A DNA stretch of 9,191 nucleotides. Origin: Verrucomicrobia bacterium GWC2_42_7 (GTDB taxonomy: Bacteria; Verrucomicrobiota; Verrucomicrobiia; Opitutales; GWC2-42-7-A). Location of the stretch: contig MIDO01000128.1 of NCBI GenBank assembly GCA_001831055.1, positions 1 through 9,191 on the forward strand. Direction: 5' to 3'. How positions within the stretch are numbered: position 1 is the first letter of the stretch; every line of letters begins with the position of its first letter. Positions 1,617-8,042 of this stretch are shown here, in pieces. A program made the translations under genes and the position numbers. The notes under the pieces are model-generated. The model saw nothing but the letters and a program-made list of their open reading frames with translations. It was not told the origin of the DNA and searched no databases.

Positions 1617-1902
1617 TCCGGAAACCTTTCTTTTTAAGAAAAAAGAAAGGTTTCCGGACCCTTCCTAAGAAAAACTAACGATCGCCCAACCAAAATCTAT
1701 CGATTTTATTTCGGCGATGGGAAGAGTTGATCTTCCCTTTGACTATATGATAATGGAGATGTTTCACAACTCACTTTATAGGCGCAATCACTTGCATTTA
1801 TTTGGCGATTAAAATCTGCAAGATTTTGGTCGCCAAATCATCCGCTTTTCTTTGGGAGAGCCCGAGAACCTTTCTTTTCTCCGCGAAAAGAAAGGTTCTC
1901 GG
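1617..1902. repeat. Composite inverted element H1-H2-core-H2-H1 (family 1)
   Basis: Almost the whole spacer between the two minus-strand genes is one symmetric structure. The outer hairpins are H1 at 1617-1658 (19 perfect pairs, arm TCCGGAAACCTTTC..., loop AAGA) and H1 at 1862-1902 (18 perfect pairs, arm CCGAGAACCTTTCTTTTC). The inner hairpins are H2 at 1681-1718 (ATCGCC...AAAATC / GATTTT...GGCGAT, with a mismatched middle) and H2 at 1801-1837 (TTTGGCGA..AAAATC / GATTTT..TCGCCAAA). A unique core of about 80 bp lies between them. The right H1 starts only 6 bp from the stop of the 204-residue gene, and the left H1 ends 25 bp from the Maf start codon. Neither is followed by a U-run, so they are not typical intrinsic terminators. 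Confidence 0.85.
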
Positions 1903-1908
1903 ACCCCA

Positions 1909-2523
1909 TTAAGGCAAAGCTTCAAAGTAGGGTTTGATTGTTTTTTTCAAAAAGTCCAGAGATGAAATAAGTTGAGGGACAAGGCGAAATCCTATGACCT
2001 CTGCAACCATCCCAACATCTTTATTCTTTGAAAAATTTAAAAACGCCTCAATGGAACCATCTATGTCACTTTGTAACTTAGATAGAGGCTCGGACCAATC
2101 GGGAGTATGCTTTTCTGCAAAATCTCTAAAACTTTGCAAAGTTTCTAAAATGGGCGCTATTTGCAGCAAAAATGAATCGATTTTAGGCACAAATTCAGAA
2201 AAAGGCCTCGAAAGAATAGGAAGATAATTGAGCTCCGGTTGGCGAGGAAGTGTTTCAAAAAACGTTACCTGCTGATCTATTAGTTTTAGAAAAAATTCAC
2301 GCTGGGCCGCGGTCGTAATGACAATCTCCCTAAATGCATCCAACTTCTTTTCCAGCATCGAATTATGCAAAGGCTTCCCATCCACTAAAAACGAAACCAC
2401 ATACCGCTTCTGCTGCTCTATAAGATCAAAAATAATGGTAACAAATGTGGCTAAATTCTCAGGAACATTTCCCGAAAAAACAACATCCTCCCCATCCACA
2501 AAAATCCTAAAAACCTCTGCCAT
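1909..2523 (-). CDS. Hypothetical protein, 204 aa
   Basis: A complete minus-strand reading frame with start ATG at 2523-2521 and a TAA stop. I do not recognise the family. The first 50 residues (FRIFVDGEDVVFSG..., then VVSFLVDGKPL) look like paired beta hairpins around a helix. The remainder, from about residue 57, is amphipathic and probably mostly helical, with no cysteine, no signal peptide and no membrane segment, so a soluble cytoplasmic protein is likely. It has the only textbook Shine-Dalgarno in the window (GGAGGG, 5 nt before the ATG). Strong 5' G/T richness of the coding strand matches the other genes here and supports it being real. It lies upstream of, and co-oriented with, the Maf-like gene. 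A functional link such as surface or flagellin modification is possible, but only by position, and a 317-bp repeat-filled spacer separates them. Confidence 0.75.
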   Translation of the reverse strand: MAEVFRIFVDGEDVVFSGNVPENLATFVTIIFDLIEQQKRYVVSFLVDGKPLHNSMLEKKLDAFREIVITTAAQREFFLKLIDQQVTFFETLPRQPELNYLPILSRPFSEFVPKIDSFLLQIAPILETLQSFRDFAEKHTPDWSEPLSKLQSDIDGSIEAFLNFSKNKDVGMVAEVIGFRLVPQLISSLDFLKKTIKPYFEALP

Positions 2524-2528
2524 AGCCG

Positions 2529-2534
2529 CCCTCC
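2529..2534 (-). promoter_or_regulatory. Shine-Dalgarno of the 204-aa gene
   Basis: GGAGGG on the minus strand, 5 nt upstream of the ATG at 2523. It fixes that start, and it is notable because the other five protein genes in the window have no comparable motif before their best start codon. Confidence 0.75.
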
Positions 2535-2572
2535 ATCATATAGTGAACGACCTTGCCAAAGCAATAAAAACC

Positions 2573-2695
2573 TTGGGGAAAACTGCTTTTGGTCACCCAA
2601 AAGCGTTTTCCCCAACCCCCTTTCCGAAAAGGAGATCGTTGCGCGGATATAAATTCCTTACGGAAATGATATCCGCGCAAGGACTTCTCTTTCGG
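2573..2695. repeat. Two-hairpin module H1-H2 (family 1)
   Basis: H1 at 2575-2613 pairs GGGGAAAAC + GCTTTTGG with CCAAAAGC + GTTTTCCCC around loop TCAC, with one bulged T. A linker CCCCCTTTCCGAAAAGGAG follows. H2 at 2641-2678 pairs GCGCGGATAT with ATATCCGCGC, with an inner TTCC/GGAA step. Beyond H2 the linker sequence appears again in inverted form (CTTCTCTTTCGG to 2695), making a long imperfect fold-back of about 72 nt. It lies 49 bp upstream of the 204-aa gene start. Short reading frames across it are translations of the repeat, not genes. Confidence 0.8.
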
Positions 2696-6122: not shown

Positions 6123-6140
6123 TAAGGAATCGGAATAAAT

Positions 6141-6361
6141 CCTGGGAAAAACCCATTGGGGTCCCCCAAAATGAGTTTTTCAGGCCCCTTTTTTGACAAG
6201 AATAAAATTTACTTAAAAAGAAAGATTTTTACAACTTGCTCCTTTTTCCAATACCTTGCGCAAAAGAAAAATTTTTCAAAATTTTCTTTTGCGCAAAAAA
6301 CTCCTTTTCGGAAAGGGGCTTGGGGAAAACTGCTTTTGGGGGACCAAAAGCAGTTTTCTCC
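6141..6361. repeat. Composite H1-H2-H2-H1 element between the LolA-like gene and the aminotransferase
   Basis: The left H1 at 6141-6184 (CCTGGGAAAAACCCATTGGGG / CCCCAAAATGAGTTTTTCAGG) starts 18 bp after the upstream stop. A linker and a badly decayed H2 follow. The right half is well preserved and inverted: H2 at 6256-6296 (TTGCGCAAAAGAAAA... / ...TTTTCTTTTGCGCAA, one bulge), linker CTCCTTTTCGGAAAGGGG, and H1 at 6322-6361 (GGGGAAAACTGCTTTTGG / CCAAAAGCAGTTTTCTCC, loop GGGA). It ends 17 bp before the aminotransferase ATG. Confidence 0.8.
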
Positions 6362-6378
6362 AATCACAACAAAAAACA

Positions 6379-7557
6379 ATGAAAAACCATATAATATCTG
6401 ATTGGGCTAGAAACATTACACCGTCGCTGACACTGGCAATCGACTCTAAGGCAAAGGCGCTGAAGGCCTCGGGGGAAGATGTTTGTAATTTTAGTTCGGG
6501 AGAACCGGATTTTGATACGCCAGACTTTATTAAAGAAGCCTGTATCCGCGCCATTAGGGAGGGAAAGACAAAGTATATTGATTCCTCTGGGCTTCTCGAA
6601 CTTCGAAAAGCTGTTGCAGAAAAGGCTTCTTGTGAAAACAAGATTCTGTCTCTGACTGAAAAAAACGTCGTCATTAGCGCAGGAGCAAAATACTCATGCT
6701 ATCTCGCTATTTTAGCCACTTGCCAGCCAGGGTGTGAAGTTTTGATTCCTTCTCCTTTCTGGCTGAGCTATCCAGAAATGGTTAAGTTGTCCGGGGCGAC
6801 GCCAAAGTTCATAGAGACATCGATAGAATCTGGCTTCAAAATTACAGCATCCCAATTAAAAAAGGCTATCACACCCCAAACGCGGATGTTGATTCTTAAC
6901 AATCCTTCAAATCCAACGGGCATCGTTTATACCAGAAGAGAATTGGAGGACTTAGTCGAAGTCGCCATTGCCTCCAATATATTGATCTTATCCGATGAGA
7001 TCTACGAAAACCTCGTATACGATGATGCACAACACGTGAGTCCTGCATCTTTTTCAGAAGAAGCTCGCAATCAAATAATTACCATTTCAGGCTTCAGCAA
7101 GACTTTTGCAATGACCGGTTGGCGATTGGGCACACTTATTGCAAACGAGACCCTTGCAAAAGCAGTTGGAAACATTCAGAGCCATACAACCTCCAATGCC
7201 ACAACCTTTGTCCAATATGGAGCCCTATCGTGCTACACACAAAAAGACGAAGCAACCTCCTTTCTAAAAAAGATGAGGCAAATCTTTGATGAACGCAGGC
7301 AGTTGCTAATGAATGGGTTACAAAATCTACCCTATTTTGAATGCATTCCGACAAAAGGGGCCTTTTATCTTTTCCCCAAAATAACGGCATCTGGCATGAC
7401 CTCCTCTGCCTTCGCCAACAAACTGCTCGACGAAGCAAAGATTGCTGTCGTTCCGGGCCTTGCGTTCGGAAACGATCAACACATTCGCTTCAGCTACGCG
7501 ACTTCTCAGGAAACTATAGAAAAAGCCCTCAAACGCATGCGAATTTGTTTGCAGTAA
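6379..7557 (+). CDS. Aspartate aminotransferase, class I subgroup Ib (PLP-dependent)
   Basis: A 392-aa cytoplasmic fold-type I aminotransferase moving an amino group between aspartate (or related acidic or aromatic donors) and 2-oxoglutarate. The N-terminal SGEPDFDTPDFIKEA is typical of subgroup Ib. NNPSNPTG (174-181) supplies N178, SDEIY supplies D206 (pyridine nitrogen) and Y209, K241 in SGFSKTFAMTGWRLG forms the Schiff base, and R370 in HIRFSYATS binds the substrate carboxylate. All key residues are intact. The frame is open upstream to an ATG at 6256, but those 41 codons are simply the translated repeat element, so MKNHIISDWARN at 6379, which matches the family's N-terminus, is the start. 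No Shine-Dalgarno is present; the leader is A-rich (ACAACAAAAAACA). Prephenate or aromatic transamination cannot be excluded from sequence alone. With mdh nearby, both enzymes share oxaloacetate, but no operon is evident. Confidence 0.9.
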   Translation: MKNHIISDWARNITPSLTLAIDSKAKALKASGEDVCNFSSGEPDFDTPDFIKEACIRAIREGKTKYIDSSGLLELRKAVAEKASCENKILSLTEKNVVISAGAKYSCYLAILATCQPGCEVLIPSPFWLSYPEMVKLSGATPKFIETSIESGFKITASQLKKAITPQTRMLILNNPSNPTGIVYTRRELEDLVEVAIASNILILSDEIYENLVYDDAQHVSPASFSEEARNQIITISGFSKTFAMTGWRLGTLIANETLAKAVGNIQSHTTSNATTFVQYGALSCYTQKDEATSFLKKMRQIFDERRQLLMNGLQNLPYFECIPTKGAFYLFPKITASGMTSSAFANKLLDEAKIAVVPGLAFGNDQHIRFSYATSQETIEKALKRMRICLQ

Positions 7558-7593
7558 GAAGTTAGTACATTAAGGATAATGGGATAAATACTT

Positions 7594-8042
7594 GGGGAAA
7601 CCCATTTTGGTCCCCCAAAATGGGTTTCCCCGAACCCCTTCCGAAAAGGAGTTATTTCGCCAGAGTAAAATCTATCGATTTTACTCTGGCGAAAGGGATT
7701 TTTTATTCTTTATTCTTCTTATAAAAGCTGAGATTAGAGACATCCAACTTACAGATTTTAATCGCCAAATAAGTACAACTCCTTTGACTCCAAAGAAATT
7801 AAAAAAATGTATTTCGCGTAAGTAAAATCGGCAGATTTTATTTGCGCGAAATATAACTCCTTTTCGGAAAGGACTAGAAAAACGTCAGTTCAAGATTTTG
7901 AGAAGGCGGGCAAGGTGAACACGACCGAGCGTACATACGTACGTGAGGAAGTGTGAATCCGCTGCCCAACGCACTCAGAAATTGAAATCACGTTTTTCTG
8001 CTTGGGGAAACCCTTTCTGGGGGACCAAAAGTAGTTTCCTCC
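7594..8042. repeat. Composite H1-H2-core-H2-H1 element split by a family 2 insertion
   Basis: The left half is the best preserved module in the window. H1 at 7594-7631 has 17 perfect pairs (GGGGAAACCCATTTTGG, loop TCCC), the linker is CCCCTTCCGAAAAGGAG, and H2 at 7655-7694 has 18 perfect pairs (TTTCGCCAGAGTAAAATC, loop TATC). The core has a stray half-H2 at 7752-7770 (CAGATTTTAATCGCCAAAT), matching the arm at 1800-1818. The right half is H2 at 7811-7852 (ATTTCGCG..AAGTAAAATC), linker ACTCCTTTTCGGAAAGG, then a 128-bp family 2 element, then the missing H1 at 8004-8042, which is degenerate. It fills the spacer between the aminotransferase and dxs. Confidence 0.8.
7874..8001 (+). repeat. Complete family 2 MITE-like element inside a family 1 module
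   Basis: 128 bp, the same length as the nested copy at 3365. Terminal inverted repeats are AGAAAAACGTCAGTTCAAG on the left and, inverted, AGAAAAACGTGATTTCAAT on the right, continuing to TTTTGAG/CTCAGAAA. The interior has GGCGGGCAAGGTGAACACG, ACCGAGCGTACATACGTACG and GTGTGAATCCGCTGCCCAACG, in the same order as the copy at 2871. The inner GCGGGCA/TGCCCAACGC pairing makes the whole element a fold-back. It separates a linker from its H1 hairpin. Confidence 0.8.

What the first reader, a model, noticed from the sequence alone, without database searches (positions are those of the whole stretch)
1617..8042. Gene spacers built as the same palindromic composite, H1-H2-core-H2-H1
The four gene-gene spacers outside the tRNA region (1592-1908, 5029-5261, 6123-6378, 7558-8080) each carry two outer hairpins with GGAAAC-type arms and inner hairpins with an AAAATC/GATTTT-like core. 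The halves are in opposite orientation, joined by a related linker, with an unrelated core of about 50-115 bp between them. Some inner hairpins (near 5077 and 6206) are decayed. Outer hairpins lie 6 bp from, or overlap, one gene's end and 8-38 bp from the next start. Either this is an abundant non-autonomous mobile element with very long, internally structured terminal repeats, or each transcript is deliberately bracketed by RNA hairpins, for example for processing, stability or insulation. I know of no described family with this two-hairpin terminal repeat.
Basis: partly seen in the sequence, partly recalled or inferred. Interest (0 to 1): 0.75.

Follow-up and report, generated by a model that had tools for sequence, protein, structure and literature searches.

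The report
Mobile two-hairpin repeats filling gene spacers
In this uncultured bacterium well over a hundred copies of a DNA block that can fold into two neighbouring hairpins sit between the genes, often as mirror-image pairs; it is most likely a non-coding mobile element whose hairpins keep their pairing while their letters change, and the same two-hairpin design turns up in three other genomes of its order.

Summary
All four spacers carry head-out hairpins H1-H2 ... H2-H1, far beyond chance (340 hairpins scoring 12 or more in 438 kb, 3 in shuffles). The unit is a ~105 bp module, H1-linker-H2, of two related classes, A and B. Class A gives at least 150 matches in the genome (capped). Neighbouring modules are head-out in 45 of 58 cases, and A and B pair nearly at random; the window's second composite is an A/B hybrid. 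One B subfamily lies inside 187 bp IS630-type MITEs (window 3591-3777 is one): ends like a resident IS630 element, and for another copy a paralogous empty site with one TA duplicated. Spacers look like old spacers plus insert; one insert seems to have rewritten the end of mdh. Stems co-vary strongly, but G-U pairs are about as rare as A-C mismatches, which favours DNA palindromes over RNA. The module occurs in two other families of the order, a look-alike in a third. Best reading: non-autonomous mobile palindromic repeats, REPIN/MITE-like in behaviour, without REP tags. The mover of class A is unknown.

The parts
1617..1719 (+). Class B module: H1 1617-1658, linker, H2 1679-1719 (left half of composite 1, head-out)
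   Evidence: R1 match 44.5 bits (as L113)
1797..1903 (-). Class B module: H2' 1800-1838, H1' 1862-1902 (right half of composite 1)
   Evidence: R1 match 44.0 bits
2573..2682 (+).
   Evidence: R1 115 bits, E 2.4e-27; fold z -9.7
3591..3777 (-). Complete 187 bp IS630-type MITE with ends TATAG...CTATA; holds one H2 (3649-3686) and H1 (3713-3748)
   Evidence: ends 23/28 and 21/28 like the resident IS630 element
3840..3869 (.). Lone class-B-like H1 hairpin
   Evidence: orientation not assigned
5009..5115 (+). Class A module, H2 decayed; H1 5009-5052 holds the last codons and the stop of mdh (left half of hybrid composite 2)
   Evidence: R1 84.1 bits; mdh C-terminus compared
5151..5254 (-). Class B module: H2' 5155-5190, H1' 5214-5253 (right half of hybrid composite 2)
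   Evidence: R1 64.6 bits
6142..6180 (+). Decayed class A H1, left end of composite 3
   Evidence: R1 51.2 bits for 6142-6298, a match stretched into the right half
6254..6363 (-). Class A module: H2' 6256-6296, linker, H1' 6320-6363 (right half of composite 3)
   Evidence: R1 113.7 bits, E 5.2e-27
7591..7696 (+). Class A module: H1 7592-7633, linker, H2 7655-7694 (left half of composite 4)
   Evidence: R1 106.5 bits; fold z -11.4
7808..8044 (-). Class A module split by an insert: H2' 7812-7851, linker 7855-7872, insert 7876-7999, H1' 8002-8044 (right half of composite 4)
   Evidence: sequence
7876..7999 (.). 124 bp palindromic element of another family, nested in composite 4
   Evidence: 83% identical to 2876-2999; a like element nested in 187 bp MITEs gives 313-314 bp copies

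Best explanation
The spacers carry copies of a ~105 bp two-hairpin module (H1-linker-H2), often as head-out pairs, which are most likely non-coding mobile elements inserted between genes and likely moved in trans by enzymes made elsewhere. Shown: high copy number, head-out arrangement, near-free mixing of A and B halves, stems that co-vary while the linker hardly changes, spacers whose length without repeats is close to that of repeat-free spacers, and, for one class B subfamily, the ends, target (TA) and a paralogous empty site of an IS630-type MITE with a resident IS630 element. Inferred: class A also moves; its ends are read as folded single-stranded DNA hairpins plus the conserved linker; its enzyme was not found; insertions close behind stop codons survive most often because they do least harm there.
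For: Copies: at least 150 class-A matches in the own genome (150 scored, all E <= 2.9e-14); 99 in 257,606 b of hit-chosen contigs and 26 in 180,180 b of others, about 187 extrapolated from the latter. Arrangement: 45 of 58 neighbouring modules within 450 bp are head-out; class A alone 27 of 31 within 650 bp. Insertion: spacers with repeats minus repeats against repeat-free spacers, medians: convergent 90 v 70.5 bp, divergent 279 v 278, tandem 133 v 103. mdh ends ...ELKEEKGLVFGENGF* where three relatives end ELKEEKSLVSELL*, ELKEEKALVGELIS*, ELKEEKALVKDLIA*: the last codons lie in H1. Class B: seven 187 bp MITEs; IS630 element G000:C18:446-1378 with DDE_3 (1.1e-28) and HTH_Tnp_IS630 (6.8e-7); ten MITEs match its ends at 21-24 of 28 bases, against at least 20 in 0.01% of 20,000 random 28-mers; removing L094:3336-3522 with one TA restores a class-A module, 87% like L101:2553-2661, another copy. 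A model built from A alone finds B modules (e.g. window 5151-5254, 64.6 bits), so the two are related. DNA-level palindromes: 312 cells changed on both sides, 92 expected by shuffling; in H1 and H2 of class A, G-U is 2.3% of paired cells, 41 G-U v 29 A-C (p 0.19).
Against: No clear target duplication for class A (24 pairs scanned), no empty site for class A (1 of 25 pairs gave a spanning hit, and that one aligns the other palindromic element), and no autonomous class-A element: of the genes tested in wide A+..A- gaps none has a transposase domain (five genes in five gaps; six genes in five further gaps, of which three are pseudouridine synthase, arginyl-tRNA synthetase and RimK-like and three have no Pfam match, so those stay open). 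Y1_Tnp, DDE_Tnp_1 and Transposase_20 gave no match, but the genome is only 64% complete. In G012 and G022 the position behind co-oriented stops (31 of 36) fits a 3'-end function as well. Against the DNA reading: the weak hairpin inside the linker is rich in G-U (91 v 5 A-C), and all de novo hairpins together give 248 G-U v 106 A-C, though that search scores G-U more kindly. Below 10% divergence one-sided stem changes outnumber paired ones (6 v 3, three pairs of copies). Class-A modules are old: nearest copies differ by 7-23%.
Confidence: 0.58

Rival explanations
1. The module is a 3'-end RNA signal: transcribed H1 shields the mRNA end and H2 ends or slows transcription; two convergent copies make the composite.
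For: H1 side faces the stop of a co-oriented gene in 17 of 19 (G022), 14 of 17 (G012) and 8 of 12 (G005, shaky gene calls) modules that have a gene on that side (p 1.3e-5 for the first two). Very stable folds. In G000, 33 of 124 class-A modules have 8 or more T in the 14 nt past H2, against 4.7% of background places. Terminator-like sites in the window 19 v 10.5 (sd 3.2) in shuffles. The linker hairpin is rich in G-U.
Against: In the window's genome class A faces starts 63 and stops 60 times; 17 of 38 scored divergent spacers carry repeats. T-rich ends are also above background on the outer side of H1 (13 of 125), and are missing past the module in G022 (1 of 23), G012 (0 of 18) and G005 (0 of 13). 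H1 and H2 stems hold G-U hardly more often than A-C.
Confidence: 0.24
2. The near-perfect, co-varying stems say nothing about function: replication template switching keeps copying one arm onto the other, so arms change together in relic repeats.
For: Between copies 10-15% apart, 67 stem cells changed on both sides and stayed paired against 60 on one side; G-U and A-C mismatches are similarly rare in H1 and H2.
Against: The linker, which is no good DNA palindrome, is the most conserved part (minority fraction 0.058 v 0.14 and 0.28 in the stems), and the design recurs in other families, so more than arm copying is at work. Below 10% divergence the count is 3 paired v 6 one-sided. Exchange of whole H2s between copies would also give double changes.
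Confidence: 0.12
3. The palindromes are chromosomal binding sites, BIME-like, for a topoisomerase or nucleoid protein, kept by the host.
For: Conserved linker, extragenic location, density (dispersed repeats are 26% of intergenic bases in contigs not chosen by hits and 47% in hit-chosen ones).
Against: No match in 129 of 132 genomes of the order by model R1 (stricter filters; the 129 include G005, which has a look-alike).
Confidence: 0.06

Closest known systems
REP / REPIN elements (PMC3116915 and PMC3733652, passages read)
   Same: Short extragenic palindromes, high copy, head-out inverted pairs, compensatory stem changes, hybrid pairs of different families (S. maltophilia), and spacers with stem-loops at both ends (A. 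tumefaciens CGTC-3 dimers). Opitutus terrae, also in Verrucomicrobia, is rich in GTAG REPs.
   Different: No GTAG or CGTC tag at the stems; H1 and H2 have 15-17 consensus pairs where REP stems have 5-13; two hairpins plus a conserved linker per half; no Y1 transposase found in the 64% complete genome.
IS630-type MITEs: RUP of pneumococcus, Correia/NEMIS (PMC2229807 and PMC3049150, passages read)
   Same: The 187 bp class B subfamily: short, non-coding, TATAG...CTATA ends, TA target, ends like a resident IS630 element, as proposed for RUP; folded inside.
   Different: They carry the H1-H2 module as cargo; class A has no such ends.
BOX elements of pneumococcus (PMC3049150, passages read)
   Same: Modular repeats in which end modules flank an exchangeable centre, predicted to fold.
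   Different: BOX ends are different modules (boxA, boxC); here both ends are inverted copies of one kind of module.
Rickettsia palindromic elements and YPAL/RU-2 (PMC2229807, passages read)
   Same: Palindromic intergenic repeats, some without TA ends.
   Different: No two-hairpin terminal module is described in the passages read.

Membership tests
IS630-type MITE (class B 187 bp subfamily, window 3591-3777) | Terminal inverted repeats like those of a resident IS630 element | tested here: met
   21-24 of 28 bases at both ends in ten copies, the window's at 23 and 21
IS630-type MITE (class B 187 bp subfamily, window 3591-3777) | TA target duplicated on insertion | tested here: met
   Shown for one copy, L094:3336-3522, against other copies of the module it sits in; 4 of 21 queries had a spanning hit, only the hits of this one were printed. 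Not shown for the window's copy.
IS630-type MITE (class B 187 bp subfamily, window 3591-3777) | Transposase of the family in the genome | tested here: met
   PF13358 at C18, two overlapping frames; activity not tested
IS630-type MITE (class A) | TATAG ends and TA duplication | tested here: not met
   No conserved outer flank seen; no clear target duplication in 24 pairs
REP (GTAG or CGTC superfamilies) | GTAG or CGTC next to the stem | tested here: not met
   H1 0 of 93; H2 CGTC 5 of 105 and GTAG 0, against CGTC 55 and GTAG 47 of 2000 random places
REPIN | Inverted pairs of palindromes as the unit | tested here: met
   45 of 58 neighbouring modules head-out; some composites align end to end. 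But 75 of 125 class-A modules are not in A-A pairs.
REPIN | RAYT (Y1 transposase) in the genome | tested here: inconclusive
   PF01797 not found, genome 64% complete
Intrinsic terminator | GC stem followed at once by a T-run, downstream of genes | tested here: inconclusive
   T enrichment past H2 in G000 only; no orientation bias there

The most novel reading that the evidence does not exclude
A so far undescribed superfamily of palindromic repeats, neither GTAG nor CGTC REPs, defined by a two-hairpin module (GGGGAAAACCnTTTT hairpin, CCCCTTTCCnAAAA linker, second hairpin) that is conserved in design across at least three, probably four, families of one order. It has taken three forms: mostly single copies behind stop codons (G012, G022), the freely interchangeable end of head-out composites (G000, G005), and cargo of IS630 MITEs (G000). 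Its enzyme would recognise folded DNA rather than sequence.
Probability: 0.4. Interest if true: 0.75.

Novelty: new variant of a known kind. Interest (0 to 1): 0.55.

Why it matters
REPINs, the nearest kind, have one palindrome per end and a partner enzyme. Here halves of two classes combine almost freely, stems evolve by paired changes while the linker stays nearly fixed, and the design is shared between families whose stem letters differ. That makes structure-only recognition of DNA ends testable. In this genome dispersed repeats of several kinds make up 26% (contigs not chosen by hits) to 47% (hit-chosen) of sampled intergenic bases. It would also extend REP-like ecosystems to a poorly studied order.

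Tried and rejected
Rejected: integron attC sites, because the flanking genes are housekeeping (mdh, aminotransferase, dxs) and attC cores are not seen (recalled motif, no search run). Rfam families: only the tRNA matches. Plasmid and phage records: no match to the one class-A composite tried. Viral contigs: one exact linker match (L139) with no module around it. A fixed composite as the only unit: outer arms of A pairs were no more alike within than between pairs in 6 pairs (0.62 v 0.63, under-detected), later replaced. An autonomous class-A element: no transposase domain among the genes tested in wide A+..A- gaps. PF00665: three matches; the one contig checked (C12 = L097) has no class-A module within 4 kb of it (list used). 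A half-H1 pattern with up to 2 mismatches gave 57+55 places against 0+0 for the pattern read backwards.

Weak points: the gene caller is home-made; set A contigs were chosen by hits; R1 was built from 58 modules chosen for having both hairpins, and searches found these again; its structure was derived from the same alignment that one search tests; E-values are rough; the own-genome search scored only 150 candidates, so that count is a lower bound. Dropped rows: 8 of the 133 R1 matches at 51 bits or more were left out by hand, six as class B and two as overlapping matches on the other strand; 20 of 90 B hairpins without assigned orientation; spacers under 20 bp or with N; modules without a gene on the H1 side (4 of 23, 1 of 18, 1 of 13; 2 of 125). 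The G022 and G012 orientation counts use 23 and 18 modules from the places fetched, not all copies. Changed on re-reading the calls: confidence of the best explanation from 0.60 to 0.58 and of the RNA rival from 0.22 to 0.24, because the G-U counts of the linker and of the de novo hairpins had been left out.
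Full report
What is there. The window (G000:C128:1-9191, a 1.30 Mb assembly in 133 contigs, 64% complete) carries an MptE-like gene, mdh, a LolA-like gene, an aminotransferase, dxs and tRNA-Glu. The six best-ranked named relatives of mdh are Verrucomicrobia or Spartobacteria MAGs at 67-71% identity. Relatives were offered only at order level, 17 genomes of 17 families.

The unit. Class A reads TTGGGGAAAACCGCTTTTGG-tccc-CCAAAAGC..GTTTTCCCCAA, then CCCCTTTCCGAAAAGGAG, then a second hairpin such as TTGCGCGGATATAAATTCC-ttc-GGAATTTATATCCGCGCAA. 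Class B has GGAAACCTTTCTTTT stems, a CTTTCCAAAGAAAAGCG-like linker and its own H2 types. A model from 58 class-A modules finds 150 of 150 scored places in the own genome and also finds B modules. Over 36 pairs and 58 copies, 95.6% of cells pair, 24 pairs have changes on both sides, 312 cells changed on both sides against 92 in shuffles, and sliding the partners destroys the signal (the structure comes from the same alignment, so the sliding control flatters it). The linker is the most conserved part.

Pairs. Class-A modules within 650 bp are head-out in 27 of 31 cases, and A or B modules within 450 bp in 45 of 58. End types combine as AA 25, AB or BA 14, BB 6, against 22.8, 18.5 and 3.8 at random. 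75 of 125 class-A modules are not in A-A pairs. Several class-A composites align end to end at 68-75%, so some whole composites share descent, but halves are clearly exchangeable.

Class B and IS630. One subfamily gives seven copies of exactly 187 bp, TATAG...CTATA, each with one H1-H2 module, and three of 313-314 bp in which a palindromic element like that at 7876-7999 is nested. Contig C18 holds an IS630 element (446-1378) whose ends match these ten MITEs at 21-24 of 28 bases, with DDE_3 and HTH_Tnp_IS630 domains in two overlapping frames. Copy L094:3336-3522 sits between linker and H2 of a class-A module; taking it out with one TA restores a module 87% identical to another copy, L101:2553-2661. 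So nested insertion is shown inside this genome for this subfamily, by a paralogous empty site. 34 of 70 oriented B hairpins have TATAG or TATAA in the outer 45 bases, so the MITE frame is not shown for all of them.

Insertion into spacers. 224 spacers were scored (20 bp or longer, no N): 81 without and 143 with repeats. The length left after removing repeats is close to that of repeat-free spacers: convergent 90 v 70.5 (29 v 8 spacers), divergent 279 v 278 (17 v 21), tandem 133 v 103 (97 v 52) (medians). Repeats lie at a median of 13 bp from stops (n 155) and 62 bp from starts (n 131; p 8e-11). mdh seems to show an overwritten end: the last codons and the stop lie in H1 and differ from three relatives.

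DNA or RNA. If pairing in RNA were selected, G-U on the module strand should beat A-C. In H1 it is 12 v 12, in H2 29 v 17, together 41 v 29 (p 0.19), and G-U makes only 2.3% of paired cells. Between copies 10-15% apart, two-sided changes are as frequent as one-sided ones (67 v 60; 3 v 6 below 10%). Most of this fits palindromic DNA (folded single strands, cruciforms or arm copying) better than RNA. Against it, the weak hairpin within the linker has 91 G-U v 5 A-C, and the de novo hairpins of the sample 248 v 106, although that search penalises A-C and not G-U. In this genome class-A H1 faces starts 63 and stops 60 times.

Other genomes. Model R1 over 132 genomes of the order: G000, G012 (19) and G022 (25), none in 129 (stricter filters); the laxer search of 17 relatives gave 32 in G012 and 2 weak ones in G005. 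G022 and G012 share the H1 core and linker with G000. G005 has full head-out composites of a look-alike, with CCCCTTTCCGA in many linkers; its model R2 finds 34 scored copies there and 1 weak match elsewhere in 132 genomes, none in G000, so its kinship is likely but not shown. In 274 kb from the 15 other relatives there are 6 hairpins scoring 12 or more and one two-hairpin module, against 3 and 1 in shuffles; the G000 contigs not chosen by hits have 92 and 37 in 180 kb. In G022 and G012 the H1 side faces the stop of a co-oriented gene in 31 of 36 cases (p 1.3e-5). That is the best evidence for a 3'-end role, and it stands against a purely neutral reading there. T-runs past the module are rare in those genomes (1 of 23, 0 of 18).

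What is known. REPINs are inverted REP pairs with compensatory changes and a RAYT (PMC3116915, passages). GTAG/CGTC REPs include hybrid dimers and structured spacers, and Opitutus terrae is rich in them (PMC3733652, passages). RUP and NEMIS are TA-ended MITEs, RUP with IS630-Spn1-like ends (PMC2229807, PMC3049150, passages). The REP tags are not met here. The listings of searches showed no description of a two-hairpin family in this order; the library leaves out most subscription journals.

Verdict. A real, abundant and unusual repeat system. The 187 bp class B subfamily: a new member of the IS630-MITE kind carrying hairpin cargo (insertion shown for one copy). Class A: mobile by inference, REPIN-like in behaviour, family not assigned.

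Noticed in passing
window 2876-2999 and 7876-7999: A 124 bp palindromic element (AGAAA...TTTCT, centre GTACxTACGTACGT) with co-varying ends; 162 BLAST alignments of the two copies in the 41 sampled contigs (not distinct places). A short central stretch resembles repeats in G012 (E 0.14 at best).
   Followed up: partly
G000:C18:446-1378 (L134, L135): IS630 element with its transposase in two overlapping frames, as often seen in that family (recalled); the only PF13358 match in the genome.
   Followed up: partly
L122:1537-3318 and L096:217-2045: Similar stretches, 80% over 1846 bp; the L122 gene has F-box-like and leucine-rich repeats, and L124:1767-3887 has Sel1 repeats. Eukaryote-like domains hint at a host-associated life.
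   Followed up: no
L095:1790-2593 and L104:11532-12366: Flagellin gene in L095 and a diverged similar stretch (71% over 850 bp).
   Followed up: no
L148, L146, L222, L224-L226 (G012): The H1-H2 module often sits in the middle of another repeat with AAGACCGATGxAAAATGG-like ends (by reading).
   Followed up: partly
L156:16865-17131, L154:5414-5679 (G005): The composites there have a further nested palindrome in the core (CCCCACAGATCGCTTCGCGATC-like; by reading).
   Followed up: no
window 1909-2523 (-): A 204 aa protein with no Pfam match.
   Followed up: no
L188:468-1496 (-) and L189:527-991 (-): Two genes between wide class-A modules have no Pfam match; they are the remaining places where a class-A partner gene could hide in what I looked at.
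   Followed up: partly
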